A program made the translations under genes and the position numbers. Below are positions 5,410 through 55,186 of a stretch of DNA of 64,000 nucleotides, piece after piece. The notes beneath the pieces were generated by a model. That model was given only the letters and a program-made list of their open reading frames with translations. It had not been told where the DNA came from and did no database searches. Position 1 is the stretch's first letter; every line of letters starts with the position of its first letter. This DNA comes from Sphingomonas taxi (GTDB lineage Bacteria; Pseudomonadota; Alphaproteobacteria; Sphingomonadales; Sphingomonadaceae): positions 1,054,001 through 1,118,000 of the forward strand of contig NZ_CP009571.1 in assembly GCF_000764535.1 (NCBI RefSeq). Direction: 5' to 3'.

Positions 5410-7761
5410 TCATCGCCGCGGCAATTCCACCGTCACCAGCGTGCCCTCGCCGGGCTGCGAGACCAGCTCGATCCGCCCGCCATGCGCCTCGACGAACTGG
5501 CGCGCGAGCGGCAGGCCCAGCCCCAGCGCACGCTCGCCGGTCGGTTGCATGCCGGGCTCGCCGAACCGGTCGAACGCACGCGCGATACTCTCCGCATCCA
5601 TGCCGAACCCATTGTCGGAGACGACGATCCGCGCGCCCGTCGCGCTGCCGTCGGCGTGCAGCAGGATGCGCCCGCCTTCCGGCGTCGAGGCGACCGCATG
5701 GCGCAGCAGATGCTCGACCACTTCCTTCAGCCGCTTGGGATCGCCGCGCACCCGGCCGGTCGAGCGCGCCAGCTCCACCGCGAAGTCGAGCTTGCGCCGC
5801 TTCGCCGCCGGCCGGATCGTCTCCGCCGCGGCGCGCGCGGTGGCGGCGAGGTCGACGTCGACCCGCTCGATTTCGGCATCGTCGCCGCCCTGCGTCAGAT
5901 CGAGCACATCGTCGATCAGCAGCCCGAGCCGCTCGACCGATTGCAGGATCGCCTCGACATAGCCGTCCGCGTCTGCGGTCAGCTTGCCGGCGAATCCCGC
6001 GTGCAGCATCTCGGCGAAGCCGCTGATCGAGGTCAGCGGCGTGCGCAATTCGTAGCTCATATTGGCGACGAACTGCGTCTTGACGCGATCCGCCGCCTCC
6101 AGCGCATTGGCGCGGTCGCGCAACGCCTGCTCGGCGCGCCGGCTGTCGGTGATGTCGAGCATCGTCAGCAACGCATTGCCGTCGGGCAGCGGTACCGCGG
6201 CGAAGGCGAAATGCCGTCCGTCGGCGAAGGCGACGCGGCCGCCGCGCTGCTGGCGTTCGGTGGTGGCGGAGCGGACCAGCTCGGGGATCAGCGCGGCGCG
6301 ATTGGGCGTCGCGAGCTTCGACGCCGCCGCGGCCGCGAAGGCATCGACGCGCGGATGACCGGCGAGGAATTCCTCCTCGAACCCCCAGACCGCGCGCAAG
6401 CGGTTGTTCCAAAGCTGCAACTTGCCGTCGGCGGCGAACACCGCCAACGCCTCGAACAGATTGTCGAAGGTGGCGGTGCGCACGCGCAGCAGCGTGTCGC
6501 GCGCGCTGGCGAGCTGCACCTCCTCGGTACGGTCCTCGAAGATCGTCAGCAGGCCGCCGTCGGGCAGCGGCTGCGCGACGACGCGCAGATGGGTGCCGCC
6601 GGGCAGATGCCAATTCTCTTCGCTCGCCGTCTCGCCGGGGACGAACCAGCCGCGCCGTTCCGCCTTCCAGCTCGGGAAGTCGCGCACCTCGGGCACGCGG
6701 CTCGCCTCGCGCATCCGTTCGAGCACGCGGTCGAATTCGGGCCGGTCGGCGAGCCATTCGGCGCGCATCGCGAACATCCGCCGGAACGGCTGGTTGCAGA
6801 AGACAAGGCCGCGGTCGGGGCCGAATTGCGCGACACCGGCCGAGAGGCGGTCGAGCAGCGCGCGTTGCGCGTCGGCGAAGCGCTTGGCCCCTGCGCGCGA
6901 CTGTTCGAGATCCTCGATGTCGACCGCGAAGCTCGCCACCCCGCCAGTCGGCAACGGCACGTCGTGCACTTCGAGCGAGCGGCGCTCGCCGCCGATGGTC
7001 GCGGGCAGGACCTCGCGTTGCGGCGCTCCCGACGCCCGCGCGGCATGGGCGCCGGCGCGCGGTCCGCCGCGCCCCGATCCCTCGACCAGTTCGAGCTGGC
7101 GACCGATGACGTCGGCGGCGTCGACGCCGTCGACCGCGCGGACATAGGCGCTGTTGACCATCGCCAACCGCATGTCGCCGCTGCGATACCACATCGGCAA
7201 CGGCGCCGCCTCGATCAGCCCGGTCAGCGCCTCGAAGGCGATCGACAATTGCTCGACCTGATCGCGCAAATGCGTGATCTCCGCCTCGCTGTCGGTGGCG
7301 TCGAGCGTCCAGATGACCACCGCCCCGGTGGCGCCGAGCTCGCCCGGCGCACGGCTGCCGCGAATCGTGATCGCCCGGCCCGAGCCGATCGGATGCAGCG
7401 CCCGGACGAAGCCGCGTCCCGCGCGCTGCGCCGCCTGCACGTCGGTGGCGAGCGCCTCGGCCTCCTCGGCGGGCAGCCCCGCCCCTTCCGCGGCAAGATC
7501 GCCTAGGAAGCGCGGCGCGACGGACAGTCCCAGCCATTCGACCAGTCGCGGCGGCATCTCGATTCGCCCATCGGCGCGTACAAGCATAGCCATCGCCGGC
7601 GAAACGCTCCGCAACACCTCGGCCTCGCGGCTGCGCGCGATCACCGCGGCGGCCTCGCCGCGCAGCCGCCAGCCGACGAACAGCGCGAAGCCGCCGGCGG
7701 CGACCAGCGCCGCCAGCACCGCGCCACACAGGACTGCCGCCATCACCGAAAGCTGGATCAA
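5410..7761 (-). CDS. divL: DivL-like PAS pseudo-histidine kinase with Tyr at the H-box
   Basis: 783 residues. One N-terminal membrane segment (about 5-30) is followed by several PAS-like modules (about 45-550), a HisKA-like dimerisation helix and an HATPase_c domain. The H-box reads MSYELRTPL, so Tyr570 replaces the phospho-accepting His. This is the hallmark of Caulobacter DivL (769 residues, Tyr550), an essential cell-cycle regulator that binds DivK and controls the CckA-CtrA phosphorelay. The ATPase G1 (DNGFGMD) and G2 (ALGLGLPLARQFVEAHGG) boxes are present; the N-box is divergent (EHLLRHAV). The neighbours tsaE, amgK, murU and addB fit the order I recall around Caulobacter divL. Signalling role is inferred by homology. 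Confidence 0.88.
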   Translation of the reverse strand: MIQLSVMAAVLCGAVLAALVAAGGFALFVGWRLRGEAAAVIARSREAEVLRSVSPAMAMLVRADGRIEMPPRLVEWLGLSVAPRFLGDLAAEGAGLPAEEAEALATDVQAAQRAGRGFVRALHPIGSGRAITIRGSRAPGELGATGAVVIWTLDATDSEAEITHLRDQVEQLSIAFEALTGLIEAAPLPMWYRSGDMRLAMVNSAYVRAVDGVDAADVIGRQLELVEGSGRGGPRAGAHAARASGAPQREVLPATIGGERRSLEVHDVPLPTGGVASFAVDIEDLEQSRAGAKRFADAQRALLDRLSAGVAQFGPDRGLVFCNQPFRRMFAMRAEWLADRPEFDRVLERMREASRVPEVRDFPSWKAERRGWFVPGETASEENWHLPGGTHLRVVAQPLPDGGLLTIFEDRTEEVQLASARDTLLRVRTATFDNLFEALAVFAADGKLQLWNNRLRAVWGFEEEFLAGHPRVDAFAAAAASKLATPNRAALIPELVRSATTERQQRGGRVAFADGRHFAFAAVPLPDGNALLTMLDITDSRRAEQALRDRANALEAADRVKTQFVANMSYELRTPLTSISGFAEMLHAGFAGKLTADADGYVEAILQSVERLGLLIDDVLDLTQGGDDAEIERVDVDLAATARAAAETIRPAAKRRKLDFAVELARSTGRVRGDPKRLKEVVEHLLRHAVASTPEGGRILLHADGSATGARIVVSDNGFGMDAESIARAFDRFGEPGMQPTGERALGLGLPLARQFVEAHGGRIELVSQPGEGTLVTVELPRR

Positions 7762-7925: not shown

Positions 7926-9347
<1,422 letters not shown>

Positions 9348-9408
9348 GTGTCATGCTCCTGAAGAAGATGGATGCCGGCCCCTTAGCCGCTCCGGCCGCG
9401 CGGATCAA

Positions 9409-9428
9409 ATATAAAGATATCTTTATAT
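9409..9428. promoter_or_regulatory. 20-bp perfect palindrome, candidate SahR operator
   Basis: ATATAAAGATATCTTTATAT is its own reverse complement. This AT-only island in very GC-rich sequence lies about 60 bp upstream of the ahcY start. SahR, an ArsR-family regulator that responds to S-adenosylhomocysteine, controls SAM-cycle genes such as ahcY, metH and metF in many proteobacteria through AT-rich palindromes. Assignment to SahR is inference from the gene controlled; no sahR gene is in this window. Confidence 0.65.
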
Positions 9429-9447
9429 GTCGTCGGCCGCGGCGCGG

Positions 9448-10065
9448 TCAGGCGGTGCCGGCGTCGGGGACGAGCAGTCGCGCGTCGATCCCCGCCTTGC
9501 CGAAGGCCGCGGTCCAGCGCCGCCCGGCAGGGGTATCGAACAGCAGATCCTCGTCGCCGGCGACATGGAACCAGCCCGGCCGGGTCAGCTCGCCTTCGAG
9601 CTGGCCGTCGCCCCAGCCGGCATAGCCGAGCGCGACGAGATAGCGCGTCGGACCGCTGCCCTCGGCGATCGCGCGCAGCACGTCGACGGTGCTCGACAGC
9701 GACCAGCGGCCGGCGACGTCGATCGTATCCTGTCCGCTCCAGTCGCTCGAATGGACGACGAAGCCGCGCCGCGGATCGACCGGGCCGCCGAAATGCACCG
9801 GCGCGTCGGGCGCGACGCCGTGCGGGATCTCGAACTGGTCGAGCAGATCGTGCAGGCTCAGCCCCTCGATCGTCGCGCCGACGCCGATGCCGATCGCGCC
9901 ATCGGCGTCGTGCGCGCACATCGCGATCACCGCATGGTCGAAGCTGGGGTCGCGCATACCCGGCATCGCGAGAAGGAACTGGCCGGCAAGGAAGGGTCGA
10001 TAGTGCATCGCGGCGAACATAAGCTGCGCCACGGCTTCTGCCATGCTTGAAATCAACGCCGTCAT
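9448..10065 (-). CDS. YqgE/AlgH family protein (UPF0301)
   Basis: 205 residues from an ATG at 10065 with GGGAGG six bases upstream; the longer open frame is a shadow of the peroxiredoxin region. The UPF0301 pattern is clear: LAGQFLLAMPGMRDPSFDHA, then IAMCAHDADGAIGI, FGGPVDPRRGFVVHSSDW and ALGYAGWGDGQLEGEL. The fold is known, but the biochemical role is not settled; the AlgH name comes from a Pseudomonas alginate phenotype. It diverges from the peroxiredoxin gene on the opposite strand, so the two share a 64-bp promoter gap. Confidence 0.92.
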   Translation of the reverse strand: MTALISSMAEAVAQLMFAAMHYRPFLAGQFLLAMPGMRDPSFDHAVIAMCAHDADGAIGIGVGATIEGLSLHDLLDQFEIPHGVAPDAPVHFGGPVDPRRGFVVHSSDWSGQDTIDVAGRWSLSSTVDVLRAIAEGSGPTRYLVALGYAGWGDGQLEGELTRPGWFHVAGDEDLLFDTPAGRRWTAAFGKAGIDARLLVPDAGTA

Positions 10066-10129
10066 GCCCGACCTCCCGCGGCGTGGCGCCGTCCGGCGAC
10101 CACCCGCAATCCAGCATCGGAGACCCAAG

Positions 10130-10609
10130 ATGACGATCACCGTCGGCGACAAGATACCGGCCGCCACCCTGACCAAGGTCACCTCCGATGGCCCGGACCA
10201 GATCACGACCAATGCGTTGTTCGACGGCCGCACCGTCGCGCTGTTCGCCGTGCCCGGCGCCTTTACCCCGACCTGTTCGGCCAAGCACCTGCCCGGCTTC
10301 GTCGACAAGCGCGAGGAACTGGCCGCCAAGGGCATCGACGAGATTGCCTGTATCTCGGTCAACGATCCCTTCGTGATGGGTGCGTGGGCCAAGTCGGCCA
10401 ACGCGGAGGGCATCACGATGCTCGCCGACGGCAATGCCGATTTCGCCGAGGCGATCGGCCTGACGATGGACGGCAGCAAGTTCGCGATGGGCAAGCGCAG
10501 CCAGCGCTACACGATGCTGGTCGAGGACGGCGTCGTGAAGCAGCTCCACGTCGAGGCCCCCGGCGAGTTCAAGGTCAGCAGCGCGGAATATCTGCTCGGC
10601 GAGCTCTGA
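10130..10609 (+). CDS. Peroxiredoxin, Prx5 (hybrid glutaredoxin/thiol) type
   Basis: 159 residues from an ATG at 10130 with GGAGA eight bases upstream. It reduces hydrogen peroxide and organic hydroperoxides at the expense of glutathione/glutaredoxin or thioredoxin. The peroxidatic motif is PGAFTPTCS with Cys49; the Prx5 features HLPGF and the SVNDPFVMGAW segment follow. There is no second cysteine in the usual C-terminal resolving position, so it is probably a 1-Cys or glutaredoxin-dependent enzyme. It diverges from yqgE and ends before a type B repeat, which may help end transcription. Confidence 0.95.
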   Translation: MTITVGDKIPAATLTKVTSDGPDQITTNALFDGRTVALFAVPGAFTPTCSAKHLPGFVDKREELAAKGIDEIACISVNDPFVMGAWAKSANAEGITMLADGNADFAEAIGLTMDGSKFAMGKRSQRYTMLVEDGVVKQLHVEAPGEFKVSSAEYLLGEL

Positions 10610-48773: not shown

Positions 48774-50117
48774 CTAAATCGGCAGCGACAGTGTGAACCG
48801 CGCACCGTCTCCCGGCACGCTCTCCACGGCAAGATCGCCTCCCATCGCCCGCGCCAGCCGGCGCGCGATATAGAGGCCGAGGCCGTTGCCGCCCGCCTCG
48901 CTCGGATCGACCCGCTCGAACTTCTCAAAGATGCGGGCCTGATCCTCCGGCGCGATACCCTTGCCCTGATCCGCGACGACCGCTTCGGCCATGTCGCCGC
49001 TGCGGCTGACCGTGACGCTGACGACGCCACCCTCGGCCGAATAGCGCAGCGCGTTGCCGATCAGATTGACCATGATCTGCAAAGCCCGACGAAAATCCCC
49101 GGAGGCCGGCACGCGCAAGTCCGGCAAGGGGCGCGCGATCGCCACGCCGGCATTGGCGGCGCGAACCGACAGCAGGCCGGCCGCGCGCCGGGCGACGTCG
49201 GCAAGATCGATCGCCTCGGTTTCCAGTGAGAAATCGGCGCGCTCGACCGCCTGCAGATCGACGAGGTCGTCGACCAGTCCGAGCAGATGGCGACCGGCAT
49301 TGGCGATATCCGATGCATAATCGACATAGTCGCGTTGCACCGGCCCCTCCGCCTCGGCGTGGATCGTGTCGGCGTGCGCGATGATCCGCGCGAGCGGCGA
49401 GCGCAACGCGCGATCGAGCCCCTCGGTGAAGTCGGTCGAGATCGTCGCCTCGACCGGCGCAGGCGCGGTTTCCGCGACGCGCGCCACGCCGGCCAGCCCG
49501 GCGAAATCGCCCGCGGCATCTTCCTTGACCGTCGCGGTCAGCAGCATGCGCGTATCGCCGCTGCGTAGCCGCGCGTGCTGCTCGTCGAACGGGCGCCGCC
49601 GCGCCACCGCCTCGAGGATCGGCAAGGCGCCACTCTCGGTCGCATCGAGCGTGAACAGCGAAGTCAGCGGCTGGCCGAGCAGCCCGAGCGCATCGAGCCC
49701 CAGCCGCCGCGCCGGATCGATCGAGACGAAGGTCAGTCGCAGGCCGGCGTCGGTCTCCCACGACATCGCGCCATCCTCGATCACCGTCGCCAGCGGTCGT
49801 TCCGCGACAGGCTGCGGGCGCAAGCCGCGCCAGCCGCTCACCGCCATCCGCACCCCCTCGCCGTCCGGCTGCACCCGCACCCAGAGTTCGAGGTCCGCGT
49901 CCTGATCGGCGACCGTCACCGACCGCGACACCAGGATGCCGAGTCGCCGCGCGAGCCGCACCACCGTCGCCAGCTGCGGGATCGCCAGCGTCGCCCCGAT
50001 CGCCCCGCCGGCCTGATCGTTGAGCGCCATCAGCGCCGGGTCGGCGGCGATCAACCGCCCCTCGCCGTCGAGCGAGGCATGGCTTAGCGGCATGTCGGGA
50101 ATGCTGTCGACCCTCAT
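48774..50117 (-). CDS. PAS-type sensor kinase lacking the phospho-accepting His
   Basis: 447 residues from the ATG at 50117. The N-terminal half has PAS-like modules (GEGRLIAADPALMALNDQAG, and a second around residues 110-215). The HisKA-like helix reads FTEGLDRALRSPLARI: Arg236 stands where His is expected and Ala follows where Glu is expected. The HATPase_c domain looks complete: N-box MVNLIGNALRYSAEGG, G1 VADQGKGIAPED, G2 GNGLGLYIARRLARAMGG. No membrane helix. The start overlaps the DUF2336 gene by 4. It could bind ATP and act as a scaffold or sensor rather than autophosphorylate. Confidence 0.9.
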   Translation of the reverse strand: MRVDSIPDMPLSHASLDGEGRLIAADPALMALNDQAGGAIGATLAIPQLATVVRLARRLGILVSRSVTVADQDADLELWVRVQPDGEGVRMAVSGWRGLRPQPVAERPLATVIEDGAMSWETDAGLRLTFVSIDPARRLGLDALGLLGQPLTSLFTLDATESGALPILEAVARRRPFDEQHARLRSGDTRMLLTATVKEDAAGDFAGLAGVARVAETAPAPVEATISTDFTEGLDRALRSPLARIIAHADTIHAEAEGPVQRDYVDYASDIANAGRHLLGLVDDLVDLQAVERADFSLETEAIDLADVARRAAGLLSVRAANAGVAIARPLPDLRVPASGDFRRALQIMVNLIGNALRYSAEGGVVSVTVSRSGDMAEAVVADQGKGIAPEDQARIFEKFERVDPSEAGGNGLGLYIARRLARAMGGDLAVESVPGDGARFTLSLPI

Positions 50118-51214
50118 CGCACCGCCTCGCGAGTGAGCGCCGCGATCGCCATGCGCAGATCGTGGTGCAGCGTCAACGGCGCCAGCGCCGACCGCGCCGC
50201 CTCCGCCGACACCGTGACGATCGCGTCGAGATCGTCGGCGAACGCCTCGATGTCGCGGCGCGGGTCGGCATCCGCCAGGGCGAGGGCGATCCGTGCGATC
50301 GCGCTCCGGTCGAGCCCGGCTGCGCGCAAGGCCAGCCACAACCTGTCGCCTTCGGGTTCGAGGACGATCGTCCGCGCGCCCTCGAAGTCGAGATCGACCG
50401 CCCGGCCGAGCACCGCGATGAACAGCAACAGCCGCCGGTCGCCCAGCGTTTCGATCAGCAGTTCGCCGACCTCGTGCGGGCGCGCGTCGATCGCCGCCGC
50501 CAGCCGCACCGCGGCAGCTTCGGGGCGCTGCCCCTCGTCGTGTGCGGCGAGATTGCGTTGTGCCGCCTCAACGATTGCGCGGTCGACGCCGCCGTCCTCG
50601 CCGCCCGCAGCGACCTGCGCCTCGCGGATCGCGGCCGCGACCCACCAGACCAGTTGATGATGGCGTTCGGCGGGCAGGATGCCGGTCACCACCCCGCCCT
50701 GCTCGGCAGCGGCGCGGCGCCGGGTCTCCGCCGACAGCAACGCGCGCGCGGCTGCGGCGACGACGCCGTCGTCGACCTCGGCGAGCCGGACCAGCAGGCT
50801 CGCCTGTTCCGGGGTCGCGGCGCTGGGCGCGAGGCGCGCGGCGATAAGATCGCAGGACACCTGGGCGAGCAGCTCGTCGATCAGCAGCCGGTCGCGCAGC
50901 AGCCCGGCGCGGGACAGTCGCCGCACCACGTCGTCCTGCGCCGTCAGCAAATGCTCGGCGCGTGTTTCGGCACCACGTCCAGACAGGATGCGCGCCGCAT
51001 GACGACGGATCTCCGTCTCGATCCCCTGCACGACGCCGCTCAGCACCCGGCCCAGCGTCAGCCGCGTCCGCTCGTCGAGCCGCGCCTCTTCGGCGAGGAA
51101 GAAGTCCGCGATCGCTCCCGTCAGGCGTGCGTCCGCCCGCGCGGCGAGCCGGCGCGCTGCATTGATACGGGTGTCCAGCACATCCCGCTCCGTCTGTTCC
51201 GGTCCGACCGCCAT
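50114..51214 (-). CDS. DUF2336 family protein
   Basis: 366 residues, all-helical in appearance, resembling HEAT-like repeats. The N-terminal part (RLAARADARLTGAIADFFLA, then RLDERTRLTLGRVLSGVVQGIE) and the middle (VRLAEVDDGVVAAAARALLSA) have the DUF2336 pattern found in alphaproteobacteria. The function of that family is unknown. It overlaps the pseudokinase by 4 bases and follows the membrane protein gene by 34, so all are probably co-transcribed. A role as a protein-interaction partner of the kinase is a guess. Confidence 0.85.
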   Translation of the reverse strand: MAVGPEQTERDVLDTRINAARRLAARADARLTGAIADFFLAEEARLDERTRLTLGRVLSGVVQGIETEIRRHAARILSGRGAETRAEHLLTAQDDVVRRLSRAGLLRDRLLIDELLAQVSCDLIAARLAPSAATPEQASLLVRLAEVDDGVVAAAARALLSAETRRRAAAEQGGVVTGILPAERHHQLVWWVAAAIREAQVAAGGEDGGVDRAIVEAAQRNLAAHDEGQRPEAAAVRLAAAIDARPHEVGELLIETLGDRRLLLFIAVLGRAVDLDFEGARTIVLEPEGDRLWLALRAAGLDRSAIARIALALADADPRRDIEAFADDLDAIVTVSAEAARSALAPLTLHHDLRMAIAALTREAVR

Positions 51215-51248
51215 GGCCTGACGCTACCTCTCTATCATTAAGACAGCG

Positions 51249-52430
51249 CTAAGGGTGCCGCCGCAATCGTTCGATTGCAGCGGCAAGCGTGGCGGCGGCG
51301 TAGACGGCGGCAAGACCGAGCCCGACGGCGGGCGCCGAGACGATCGCACCGCACCAGAGGAGCAGCAGATAGGCGGGCGCACTGCCCCACCAGCTCCGCC
51401 GCGGTCGGTGCCCGAGCGCGCGTTCGCCGAGCACCGCAAGCAGGACGAGACCGATCGCCAGGATCTCCGGCGCGCCGTCCGCCTGTGCCTGCGCAGCCTG
51501 TCGACCGTAGAACAACGCCGCCAGCGCCGGCAGGCCACCGGCAAGCCGCTGCAACCAGCGCTCCGCCGCCGGCTCGTCGCGCAGGTCCGCCAGCGTCGCG
51601 GCCAGCGACAGGCCGAGCGTGCCGAGCACCGTCAGCAACAGCCCCGATCCCGGATAGGCGATGGCGATCAACGTCAGCCCTAGCACGCCGACGACCCCCG
51701 CGCCCGCCGCCACCGCGGTCGCCGGAACGGCGCGCGGCACGAGCAACGGGATCACCGTGCGCGCGAGCGGCGCCGTGACGAATCGCTCGAACCAGCCGCT
51801 GCGGCCGGAGATCATCGCCGCCAGCACCGTCCGCCCCCGCGCCTCCAACGCCGCCGCGGCATGGCCGACGCCGTGGCCACCGCGGATCGCCTCCTGTGGC
51901 AGCAGCACGTGCACCGCATGCGCCTGCGAGGCGAGGCGCACCAGCGTCGACTGGACGTCATAATCACGCGGCATCGCGGCCAGCTCCGCGAGCCGGCGCG
52001 GATCGAGCCGCGCCACCCCCGCCCAGACCATGCCGCTGCCCACCCGCTCATAGCCCAGCGCCGCCTGATCCTCGGGCATCACCAGCAAGGCGTCGCCGCC
52101 GTCCCGCGCCAGCGCCGCCAGCGTCTCCGCGGTCGTTGTCAGGCCGTCGGCGAGCATCAGCACGCGGGCCAGCGGGTGGAGCTTCTCCGCCGCCTCGGCC
52201 GCGGTGCGGACCGTATCGACCGCGACGCCGCGCTTGCCGATCCGGCTGATCGCGCCGAGCAATTCCGGCGTCAGCCGCGCGACGAGGATCACGATCTGCG
52301 ACGCGCCCGACGCGATCAGCAGGCGTGCCTGATATTCGATGAGCGTCACGCCGCCGAACGGCAGCGTCGCGGTCAGCATCGCGGGCCGATCATCCGCGTC
52401 GTGCATGGCGAAGAGAAGGCCGGCGAGCAT
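51249..52430 (-). CDS. Nucleotidyltransferase-like membrane protein resembling a decayed IPCT/DIPPS enzyme
   Basis: 393 residues. The N-terminal 190 have a GT-A nucleotidyltransferase look (ATLPFGGVTLIEYQARLLIA, then ASQIVILVARL; MPEDQAALGYERVG). A GWFERFVTAPLARTVIPLLV link leads to five to six hydrophobic helices. This layout and link match bifunctional inositol-phosphate cytidylyltransferase / CDP-alcohol phosphatidyltransferases. The catalytic CDP-alcohol motif DGx2ARx8Gx3Dx3D is not there; the equivalent stretch reads LADLRDEPAAERWL. It lacks the Gly-rich GxGxR loop too. I infer a degenerate or repurposed enzyme. Confidence 0.7.
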   Translation of the reverse strand: MLAGLLFAMHDADDRPAMLTATLPFGGVTLIEYQARLLIASGASQIVILVARLTPELLGAISRIGKRGVAVDTVRTAAEAAEKLHPLARVLMLADGLTTTAETLAALARDGGDALLVMPEDQAALGYERVGSGMVWAGVARLDPRRLAELAAMPRDYDVQSTLVRLASQAHAVHVLLPQEAIRGGHGVGHAAAALEARGRTVLAAMISGRSGWFERFVTAPLARTVIPLLVPRAVPATAVAAGAGVVGVLGLTLIAIAYPGSGLLLTVLGTLGLSLAATLADLRDEPAAERWLQRLAGGLPALAALFYGRQAAQAQADGAPEILAIGLVLLAVLGERALGHRPRRSWWGSAPAYLLLLWCGAIVSAPAVGLGLAAVYAAATLAAAIERLRRHP

Positions 52431-52495
52431 CCGGCCGCTGTTAGGCGGTGATGCCGCCCCTGCCTAGAGCCACGCGCGCTTTGTCGCGCGTCGCC

Positions 52496-52786
52496 TCAGA
52501 GCCGGTCGATCGACCGCCGCAGCTTGGCGAGCAGTGCCGCATCGTGGGGCAGTTCGGCCGCCTGCGTCGCGAGCGCCATCAGACGGACCGCGCCGAAGCT
52601 CGCCGCCAGCCCCTTCAATCGCGCCGCCGCGCCGCGCCATTCGTCGTCGTCCTGCGCCGCCTCCAGCGCGACCAGGCCGCGCTGCGCGCTCTCGACGAAC
52701 GCCAGCCGCAACTCGGCGATCAGCGCCGGTTCGTCACCCACTGCCGCGGCCAGCGCCGCATCGATCGCACCTGGATCATAAGCCAT
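52496..52786 (-). CDS. Hpt-like domain protein without the phospho-accepting His
   Basis: 96 residues, a four-helix bundle by pattern. FVESAQRGLVALEAAQDDDE and AARLKGLAASFGAVRLMALA match the Hpt consensus, where the His-x-Leu-Lys-Gly element holds the phosphorylated His. Here the position four before Gly59 is Ala55, so it cannot carry phosphate in the usual way. It is the first gene of the four-gene minus-strand operon and diverges from the coiled-coil gene across about 100 bp. It could bind a receiver domain without transferring phosphate. Confidence 0.82.
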   Translation of the reverse strand: MAYDPGAIDAALAAAVGDEPALIAELRLAFVESAQRGLVALEAAQDDDEWRGAAARLKGLAASFGAVRLMALATQAAELPHDAALLAKLRRSIDRL

Positions 52787-52885
52787 CGCCGGTATGTAGC
52801 GCCGCGCTGCTTAACCAAGTGTTGCGGTTTTGCTTTATGAGGGTCGCGAAGACGGGTAGGTTCGCCATCGAAGAACGGGGGTTCC

Positions 52886-55186
52886 ATGATCATCGACATG
52901 CGGGCAGACAGCGCCACCAGCGACGCTTACGCCTCTGGTGAGCACGATCGGATCGGCGGCTATATGGCGGAAAACGAAGGCGAATGGCAGGCCGAGCCGC
53001 TTCCCTGGACGGACGCGGCCGAGCCGGAGTCGCCCCGGTCCGCATGGCTGCCGCCGGTGATCGCGCTGCTCGCCTCGCTGCTCTGGCTGGGCGGCATGCT
53101 GTGGCTGGCGCGCGATCAGCTGCCGTTCCTGCTGCCCGTCGACCTCGCGCAGTTCATCGCCGCGCTCGCGGTCGTGCCGGTGCTGATCGGCATCGTCTAC
53201 CTTCTCGCGATGCGGACCAGCCGGCGCGAGGCGCGGCGGTTCGGCGCCACCGCCGCGGCGATGCGCGCCGAGGCCGCGAGCCTCGAACGCACCGTCGCGA
53301 TGCTCTCGCACGCGCTCGACGGCAACCGCCGCCAGCTCGCCGAGCAGGTCGCGACGCTCAAGACCATGGGCGACACCGCCAGTGAGCGCCTCACGTCGGT
53401 CAGCCGGGGCATGGCCCAGCAAATCGACCAGGCGGAAGCCCACGCCTACGCCCTCTCCCAGGCCGCCACCGATGCGCAGCAGAGCCTCGGCGTACTGCTT
53501 GCCTCCTTGCCGCGCGCGCAGGCCGATGTCCTCGATATCCAGCATCTGCTCGACGATACCGGCCTTGCCGCGAGCGAGCATGCCGCGGCGCTGTCGGCGC
53601 AGCTCGCCGCGCTCGCCGAACGTGGCCGCGAGGCGGAGAACGTCACCGGTAGCGCGGCGCAGAAGCTCGCGGCGCATATCGCCTGCATGGAGGCGACCAG
53701 CGAAACCGCGAGCGCACGGCTCGAAGCCGTTACCGGCAGCATGTCGGACGCGGTCGACGGCCTGCTCGACCGTACTGCCGATGCCGTCGACGAGGCGCGC
53801 AAGGGCATCGCCGTGCAGGGCGAGGCGATGCTGGCGATGCTGCGCGTCAATCAGGCGGCGCTCGACAGCGCCGCGCGCGACAGCGTCGATGCGCTCACCG
53901 AGCGGGTCGCGGGGCTGGAGGACGTGATCGATCGCGTCACGTTGCGCCTGCACGACCAGCGGATGGCGAGCGAGGAACTGCTCGCCGGACTCGACGGCGG
54001 CATCGGGCAGGTCGAGACCCGCCTCGACCAGCTTCACGTGCACGGCGTCGAACGATCGCAGATGCTCGCCGCGTCGATCAGCGCGCTCGGCGGCTCCGCC
54101 GACGCGATGACCGAGGCGTTACGCGCTGGCGACGTCATGGCATCGCGGACGATCTCCACCACCGAATCCTTGCTGATCGCGCTCGATGCCGCGGCGCGCG
54201 AGATCGACGAGACGCTGCCCGAGGCGCTCGGCCGGCTCGATGCCAAGGTCCTGGCCAGCAAGCAGGTCGTCGTCGCCGCCAAGCCCGAACTGCTGGCTTT
54301 GGTCGCCGCCGCGGAAAGCACACACGAGGCGATCGAGGCGATCGCGGGCGTCATCTCCGAGCAGAGCGGCACGCTGGATCAGCTTTCGGGCACCCTGCTG
54401 CAGACGTTGAGCGAGGGGCGTGCCAAGGCGGATGCGCTCGGCATGATGGTCGACGAGACGATCGAACGGACCCACCGCTTCGCCGAGGACGCCGCGCCGC
54501 GGCTGGTCGACGCCTTGCTCCGCGTCCGCGAGACCGCGACGGTCGCTGCCGACAAGGCGCGGGAAACGCTTTCCGCGGTCATCCCGGATGCCGCGGCGCA
54601 ATGGGAGCAGGCGGGCGCCGAGGCGATGCGCCGCGCCACCGGCGACACCGTCGAGCGTCAGGTCCGCGCCATCACCGATGCGACCGGTGAAGCGGTCGAG
54701 GCGGCGACCCGCGCGACCGAGCGCCTGTCCGCACAGGTCCGCCAGATCCTCGAACAGACCGCGCTGGTCGAAGCGAAGATCGATCAGGCACGCAACGAGC
54801 GCGACGAGGCGGAACACGATACGTTCGCCCGTCGCGCCTCGCTGCTGATCGAATCGCTCCACTCGGCGTCGATCGACATCACCAAGGCGTTCGCGCCCGA
54901 AATATCGGACAGCGCCTGGGCGGCCTATCTGAAGGGCGACCGCGGCGTCTTCACCCGCCGTGCGGTCCGCGTGCTCGACCCCGCCGACGCCCGCGACATC
55001 GCCCGGCTGTACGACGACGACGAGACGTTCCGCGAGGCGGTCAATCGCTACATCCACGACTTCGAGAGCATGTTGCGCAACATCCTCGCCCAGCGCGACG
55101 GCTCGCCGCTCAGCGTGACCTTGCTGTCGTCCGACATGGGCAAATTGTACGTGGCTCTGGCGCAGGCGATCGAGCGGCTGCGCTGA
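52886..55186 (+). CDS. Large two-TM coiled-coil protein (TipN-like layout)
   Basis: 766 residues. The N-terminus is a soluble tail of about 50 residues, then two membrane helices near 54-75 and 88-108, then about 500 residues of Ala-rich coiled coil. A conserved-looking C-terminal segment follows (ARRASLLIESLHSASIDITK, then FRENV-like FREAVNRYIHDFESMLRNIL and LLSSDMGKLYVALAQAIERL). This layout resembles polarity factor TipN of Caulobacter, but by shape only. It diverges from the Hpt-like gene, sharing a promoter region that holds TTAACCAA. Function unassigned. Confidence 0.82.
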   Translation: MIIDMRADSATSDAYASGEHDRIGGYMAENEGEWQAEPLPWTDAAEPESPRSAWLPPVIALLASLLWLGGMLWLARDQLPFLLPVDLAQFIAALAVVPVLIGIVYLLAMRTSRREARRFGATAAAMRAEAASLERTVAMLSHALDGNRRQLAEQVATLKTMGDTASERLTSVSRGMAQQIDQAEAHAYALSQAATDAQQSLGVLLASLPRAQADVLDIQHLLDDTGLAASEHAAALSAQLAALAERGREAENVTGSAAQKLAAHIACMEATSETASARLEAVTGSMSDAVDGLLDRTADAVDEARKGIAVQGEAMLAMLRVNQAALDSAARDSVDALTERVAGLEDVIDRVTLRLHDQRMASEELLAGLDGGIGQVETRLDQLHVHGVERSQMLAASISALGGSADAMTEALRAGDVMASRTISTTESLLIALDAAAREIDETLPEALGRLDAKVLASKQVVVAAKPELLALVAAAESTHEAIEAIAGVISEQSGTLDQLSGTLLQTLSEGRAKADALGMMVDETIERTHRFAEDAAPRLVDALLRVRETATVAADKARETLSAVIPDAAAQWEQAGAEAMRRATGDTVERQVRAITDATGEAVEAATRATERLSAQVRQILEQTALVEAKIDQARNERDEAEHDTFARRASLLIESLHSASIDITKAFAPEISDSAWAAYLKGDRGVFTRRAVRVLDPADARDIARLYDDDETFREAVNRYIHDFESMLRNILAQRDGSPLSVTLLSSDMGKLYVALAQAIERLR

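What the first reader, a model, noticed from the sequence alone, without database searches (positions are those of the whole stretch)
48774..55186. Four-gene operon of signalling proteins without their catalytic His, opposite a giant coiled-coil protein
One operon encodes an Hpt-like protein, a decayed IPCT/DIPPS-like membrane protein, a DUF2336 protein and a sensor kinase. Both two-component parts keep their fold signatures but have lost the phosphorylated histidine. The genes overlap or nearly abut, and the divergent gene encodes a two-TM coiled-coil protein. Together they look like a non-catalytic sensing and scaffolding module at the membrane, perhaps for polarity or cell cycle. I know of no described system with this set.
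Basis: partly seen in the sequence, partly recalled or inferred. Interest (0 to 1): 0.72.

Follow-up and report, generated by a model that had tools for sequence, protein, structure and literature searches.

The report
Operon of a phosphate-free phosphorelay
A bacterial signalling relay seems to have lost its response regulator and then the histidines that carried phosphate, yet its genes are kept beside a gene for a likely membrane scaffold protein, which suggests that it now works by binding rather than by passing phosphate.

Summary
Related families carry the parts with intact His and a dedicated response regulator (RR). Where the kinase was read, 12 of 12 RR-bearing genomes have its His, 5 of 60 RR-less ones do. 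Likely course: RR loss, then His loss, proteins retained. HK is not DivL, which is encoded elsewhere in the window. CC belongs to a class-wide family that probably includes the polar-growth proteins GPR/RgsE (inferred). Best reading: an ATP-gated, phosphate-free complex at the membrane. ATP binding, complex formation and output are untested.

The parts
52496..52786 (-). HPT: 96-aa Hpt-like protein without the phospho-His (A55 at the His column; R56, K58 and G59 of the motif kept)
52622..52624 (-). codon 55 of HPT, where 7 of 7 homologues from other families and from genera g86 and g8 have His
   Evidence: for the column; position computed from the coordinates
51249..52430 (-). MEM: 393-aa pseudo IPCT-DIPPS-like protein (nucleotidyltransferase fold plus membrane CDP-alcohol-transferase fold, motifs lost)
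50114..51214 (-). divergent DUF2336 protein, all-helical model (mean pLDDT 86.5)
48774..50117 (-). HK: 447-aa pseudo histidine kinase (sub-threshold PAS_4, HisKA without His, intact HATPase_c); overlaps the DUF2336 gene by 4 nt
49410..49412 (-). codon 236 of HK (Arg at the phospho-acceptor His position)
   Evidence: position computed from the coordinates
49053..49055 (-). codon 355 of HK, N-box Asn of the ATP site
   Evidence: position computed from the coordinates
49287..49289 (-). codon 277 of HK, the one invariant His found (AGRHLL stretch; also in the canonical relatives L203 and L209)
   Evidence: position computed from the coordinates
52886..55186 (+). CC: 766-aa coiled-coil protein with two N-terminal hydrophobic segments (by eye) and a conserved C-terminal domain; divergent from HPT

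Best explanation
The operon descends from a working phosphorelay (Hpt and a CheY-like RR encoded opposite CC, and a DUF2336-linked canonical kinase). The sphingomonad lineage lost the RR, then the phosphorylatable His of both HK and HPT. The remaining proteins were kept as a complex that signals by binding and shape change instead of phosphate transfer. HK still binds ATP and acts as an ATP-dependent switch (inferred from the invariant ATP site). HPT and DUF2336 are docking partners (inferred). MEM holds the complex in the membrane as a substrate- or lipid-sensing pseudoenzyme (inferred). The output is the organisation or activity of CC, a two-TM coiled-coil scaffold of the GPR/RgsE kind (inferred). 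Shown: gene set, residue losses, ATP-site retention, purifying selection, absence of the RR from the derived genomes searched. Inferred from living relatives: the order of the losses. Not shown: ATP binding, complex formation, location, phenotype.
For: Five genes collinear in 54 of 80 loci and mapped again in other genera of the family. HK acceptor column: 8 of 107 rows have His, namely 6 canonical kinases and 2 of 3 g25 rows; 0 of 39 further loci, chosen as strong P0001 hits. HPT: His in 0 of 120 listed homologues (of 1958), 0 of 56 readable of 57 rows from L002-L110, 2 of 36 rows from other genera, 7 of 7 rows from other families and genera g86 and g8. HK also lost the neighbouring Glu in 98 of 98 derived rows. 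ATP-site residues kept in 98 of 98 and, for N, G1 and G2, in 52 of 52 of a partly overlapping set. dN/dS 0.07-0.37. Dedicated RR in 15 of 75 genomes (9 of 27; 6 of 48); kinase read in 72 of them: His in 12 of 12 with the RR, 5 of 60 without (Fisher p 4e-10, ignoring kinship). Within G000 the best match to the canonical kinase of L190 is this HK. HPT with His is encoded opposite or near CC in 4 of 7 CC-bearing loci of other families of the order and 2 of 20 loci of the class.
Against: HPT is undetected in 25 of 80 loci (23 with the other four genes, L098 without CC too, L105 at a contig end), so a third of the loci do without it. Genus g86 (G150, G085) and G012 keep HK His without the RR, so His loss does not follow RR loss at once. 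Two of three g25 kinases have His in a degenerate motif, and two derived HPTs have His at the column (L293, L317). MEM lost its motif also in G052 and G012, whose HKs have His. One His (H277) is invariant in HK. HPT was seen in only 4 of 7 CC-bearing loci of other families (L182 is cut near CC). The test of RR against His ignores kinship. No interaction, ATP binding or localisation was measured, and CC was not aligned with a named GPR sequence.
Confidence: 0.55

Rival explanations
1. DivL-like sensor: HK uses its DHp surface to bind the phosphorylated receiver of another system (such as DivK~P) and passes this on by allostery; HPT binds a receiver in the same way.
For: DivL shows that an alphaproteobacterial pseudo-kinase can read a phosphorylated RR (PMC4211667, passages). 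HK keeps a recognisable DHp region and HPT keeps most of the Hpt motif around the lost His.
Against: The window has its own DivL. Caulobacter DivL binds an ATP analogue weakly (PMC4211667, passages) and the window DivL has His in place of the N-box Asn (my reading), while HK keeps the ATP-site residues checked. No receiver gene was seen in the operon.
Confidence: 0.2
2. Trans-kinase: HK forms mixed dimers with, or phosphorylates, another protein in trans, using its intact ATP site; its own His is not needed.
For: ATP-site residues invariant; G000 has 35 HisKA matches, this HK and DivL among them, that could include partners.
Against: The obvious partner, HPT, has also lost His. The Glu next to the acceptor is lost (98 of 98) and the residue at the Thr position varies.
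Confidence: 0.15
3. The relay still works with another acceptor residue, such as the invariant H277 of HK.
For: H277 is 98 of 98 and 52 of 52.
Against: H277 is also present in the canonical kinases L203 and L209 that keep the usual His, so it seems to predate the loss. HPT has no highly conserved His (at most 60 of 121 and 8 of 36), and the dedicated RR was not found in G000.
Confidence: 0.05
4. Random decay of unused signalling genes.
For: Motifs are lost in three proteins; HPT is undetected in 25 of 80 loci; HK residues at the His column vary widely.
Against: dN/dS 0.07-0.37; HK found at E <= 1e-60 in 297 of 397 family genomes, 71 of 96 genera (this includes genera g86 and g25, where His occurs); ATP site invariant; gene order kept.
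Confidence: 0.05

Closest known systems
DivL (pseudo histidine kinase of the CckA-ChpT-CtrA pathway)
   Same: HisKA-HATPase protein without the phospho-His, in Alphaproteobacteria
   Different: HK shares 31% over 233 residues with the window's own DivL, is shorter, has residues other than Tyr at the site, sits with DUF2336 and MEM, and keeps its ATP-site residues
Pseudo-Hpt proteins of plants (AHP6 type; recalled; the listings are mostly plant papers)
   Same: Hpt fold without the His
   Different: Bacterial, encoded next to a kinase that has lost its His too
IPCT-DIPPS of Archaeoglobus fulgidus (PDB 4mnd) and AF2299 (4o6n)
   Same: Same two-domain fold over 366 residues (predicted model)
   Different: Catalytic motifs lost in the window and in most relatives read
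GPR of Agrobacterium / RgsE of Sinorhizobium
   Same: Two N-terminal TM segments and apolipoprotein-like coiled coil; the CC family includes a 2121-aa open frame with 8 PF01442 stretches
   Different: CC is 766 aa, lies beside this operon, and was not aligned with GPR or RgsE; four other large members tested do not pass the PF01442 cut-off
Hmr pathway of Caulobacter (PMC11481889, outline and passages)
   Same: A putative relay that includes an Hpt without the HxxKG motif, with genes in adjacent and divergent operons
   Different: HmrB function was lost when either of two His was replaced; no homology with the present proteins was tested

Membership tests
DivL | Tyr (or another residue) in place of the phospho-His | tested here: inconclusive
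   His absent, but the residue is R, K, Q, A, P and others, not Tyr
DivL | is the genome's DivL (no other, better DivL present) | tested here: not met
   a protein with SYELRTPL that matches DivL 4q20 at 6.6e-37 lies at window 5410-7761; it is 31% identical to HK; HK itself matches 4q20 at 1.1e-22, below other kinases
Canonical histidine kinase (HisKA + HATPase_c) | phosphorylatable His in HisKA | tested here: not met
   R236
Canonical histidine kinase (HisKA + HATPase_c) | ATP-binding N, G1, F and G2 boxes | tested here: met
   98 of 98 derived rows
Hpt phosphotransfer domain | Hpt fold by profile | tested here: inconclusive
   24.4 bits, cut-off 24.6
Hpt phosphotransfer domain | phospho-His in H-x-x-K-G | tested here: not met
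   A55
IPCT-DIPPS | two-domain fold | tested here: met
IPCT-DIPPS | CDP-alcohol-transferase motif and nucleotidyltransferase G-x-G-T-R signature (motifs recalled) | tested here: not met
   absent in the window protein
GPR/RgsE | two N-terminal TM segments and apolipoprotein-like coiled coil | tested here: inconclusive
   TM by eye; PF01442 22.1 bits against a cut-off of 90
GPR/RgsE | direct sequence relation to a named GPR/RgsE | not tested
   no named sequence was at hand
GPR/RgsE | localisation at the growing pole | not testable with these tools
   needs microscopy

The most novel reading that the evidence does not exclude
Most of a phosphorelay (kinase and Hpt) has been turned into a phosphate-free, ATP-gated protein complex that has been kept across most sphingomonad genera and controls a polar scaffold of the GPR/RgsE kind; the loss of the response regulator was the first step.
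Probability: 0.4. Interest if true: 0.85.

Novelty: new variant of a known kind. Interest (0 to 1): 0.66.

Why it matters
Single pseudo-kinases such as DivL are known. Here two steps of one relay have lost the phosphate site, in a lineage that lacks the receiver, with living relatives that still have the old residues. That makes the evolution of phosphate-free signalling directly testable, and the link to a GPR/RgsE-like scaffold would give an entry point to sphingomonad polarity. In the library searched (open-licence PubMed Central papers, no preprints) DUF2336 gave 0 papers. One search (TipN and Sphingomonas) gave 2, neither read. Of the papers listed (20 of 75; 19 of 20; 15 of 16; 20 of 104; 12 of 25; 11 of 12), none is on this gene set by title and abstract start.

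Tried and rejected
TipN as the identity of CC: rested on recalled architecture only; one search found no paper that looked relevant, and no TipN sequence was at hand. DivL as the identity of HK: rejected. DivJ: the NCBIfam DivJ model gives 124 bits against a cut-off of 1000. DUF2336 fold: no PDB match at E <= 0.001, which does not show a new fold. MEM as a tracker of the His losses: rejected. My first reading of the Hpt column as Arg in all rows was off by one and is withdrawn. The 25 loci without a detected HPT were rescanned with an HMM; the best match had E 0.048, so no divergent copy was recovered. The HK tree is a quick tree with SH-aLRT only; it needs at least 2 changes between His and not-His and cannot tell loss from regain in genus g25. 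The Fisher test ignores kinship.

Full report
What is there. The minus strand encodes HPT (52786-52496), MEM (52430-51249), DUF2336 (51214-50114) and HK (50117-48774); the plus strand encodes CC (52886-55186). Spacing is 65, 34 and -4 nt within the operon and 99 nt to CC, which fits one transcription unit; transcription was not tested. Pfam finds HATPase_c in HK far above its cut-off, HisKA below it, Hpt 0.2 bits below it and DUF2336 above it; MEM has no match and CC none above a cut-off.

The phosphate sites. In HK the acceptor column holds Arg (R236). Of 107 aligned rows, 8 have His: six canonical kinases next to DUF2336 in other genera and two of three rows of genus g25. In 39 further loci, chosen as strong hits to HK, none has His. 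The Glu next to the His is lost in 98 of 98 derived rows. In contrast the Asn residues of the N box, the Asp and Gly of G1, the Phe of the F box and the Gly of G2 are kept in 98 of 98, and the N, G1 and G2 residues in 52 of 52 rows of a partly overlapping set. In HPT the column is A55. His is absent in 120 of 120 listed best homologues (of 1958 found), in 56 of 56 readable of 57 rows from L002-L110, and in 34 of 36 rows of other genera; it is present in 7 of 7 rows from other families and genera g86 and g8. The residue after it is basic in both groups (Arg in 35 of 36, Lys in 1; Lys or Arg in 7 of 7).

Selection. Across eight Sphingomonas loci dN/dS is 0.07-0.37 for HK and 0.10-0.32 for the other four genes, against 0.02-0.16 for gltA and gltX. 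The genes are under purifying selection but evolve faster than these housekeeping genes.

Ancestry. Seven fetched loci from other families of the order carry a CC match. In four of them (L171, L177, L184, L188; families f4 and f5) an HPT with intact His lies opposite or beside CC, and a CheY-like RR follows it (L171, L184, L188; L177: by position). L171 also has a second Hpt-like gene. Close CC homologues of known origin come from Kordiimonas, Temperatibacter and Eilatimonas. DUF2336 is next to a canonical kinase in further loci. G007 shows HPT with His, RR, MEM, flagellar genes, DUF2336 and a canonical kinase in one stretch; G052 shows RR, second Hpt, MEM, Wzi, FlgK, an FlgL-like gene, DUF2336 and a canonical kinase, with no HPT found. 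Genus g86 keeps both His but lacks the RR. The dedicated RR is present in 15 of 75 genomes (9 of 27, at 53% identity or more, where the other 18 gave only weak receiver matches; 6 of 48 at E <= 1e-25). HK was read in 72 of these: 12 of 12 with the RR have His, 5 of 60 without it do (G150, G085, G012, G024, G109). The kinase tree places the derived HKs in one group of 41 rows (SH-aLRT 99), which includes the three g25 rows, two of them with His. The simplest order is RR loss, then His loss; kinship is not corrected for.

HK is not DivL. A 783-aa DivL with Tyr at the site lies at 5410-7761 of the same window. It shares 31% over 233 residues with HK. Its N-box Asn is replaced by His (my reading). 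In Caulobacter, DivL binds an ATP analogue with a constant of 57 uM and showed no kinase or phosphatase activity (PMC4211667, passages). Within G000 the best match to the canonical kinase of L190 is HK itself, which fits descent from that kinase.

CC. Its family is found in 94 of 289 genomes of the class at E <= 1e-15, with a conserved C-terminal domain. Two N-terminal hydrophobic segments are visible by eye in 19 of the 20 class loci fetched (the printed piece is too short in L375). Open frames in the class reach 2752 aa. Of five large members tested, L359 (2121 aa) passes the PF01442 cut-off with 8 stretches, L360 matches it weakly, and L357, L358 and L361 do not. GPR (2115 aa) and RgsE (2089 aa) are membrane-anchored, apolipoprotein-like proteins needed for normal polar growth, and distant RgsE homologues were reported in Emcibacterales and Rhodospirillales (PMC8262873 and PMC7327166, passages). 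I infer that CC is of this kind; a direct alignment was not made. Of the 20 class loci, 2 have an HPT with His near CC, 3 have a DUF2336 gene near it, and 15 have neither.

Mechanism. Shown: a conserved gene set, loss of the phosphate sites of both relay proteins, absence of the RR from the derived genomes searched, and retention of the ATP site. Inferred: HK is an ATP-driven switch, HPT and DUF2336 are docking parts, MEM is the membrane anchor and CC the output. I give this 0.55, the DivL-like sensor 0.2, the trans-kinase 0.15, another acceptor 0.05 and decay 0.05.

Limits. The module is not universal: HPT is undetected in 25 of 80 loci, 23 of them with the other four genes. The loci are the best 80 of 142 and include close relatives. 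HK counts in other genera come from genomes chosen by a strong HK match. One invariant His (H277) remains in HK, but it is also in the canonical relatives L203 and L209. Papers were read as passages only (PMC11481889 with its outline; PMC4211667, PMC8262873, PMC7327166, PMC9938171); others were seen as search listings.

Noticed in passing
window 5410-7761 (-): DivL orthologue: SYELRTPL with Tyr for His, and apparently His in place of the N-box Asn, so its ATP site looks degraded too.
   Followed up: partly
L228 (G000:C1:1478000-1497000), 8486-10431: CDP-alcohol transferase with the full motif beside myo-inositol-1-phosphate synthase, like the genes that flank MEM in genus g86.
   Followed up: partly
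L171, L184, L188, L235: CheY-like RR after or near Hpt and CC, with a second Hpt-like gene in L171 and L235; a close RR relative was not found in the derived sphingomonad genomes searched.
   Followed up: partly
window 54848-55183 (+): C-terminal domain of CC, conserved across the class and without a Pfam match.
   Followed up: partly
L208, L209: FlgK and a flagellin-family (FlgL-like) gene between MEM and DUF2336 in two early-branching genomes, which hints at a flagellar past of the kinase (Pfam for L208 only).
   Followed up: no
L228 331-774 (-): Another Hpt-like protein with His (AHTLKG) in the window's genome (E 1.9e-4 to the HPT profile).
   Followed up: no
L293, L317: Two derived HPTs with His at the acceptor column beside kinases that have Val or Thr there; chance or regain.
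   Followed up: no
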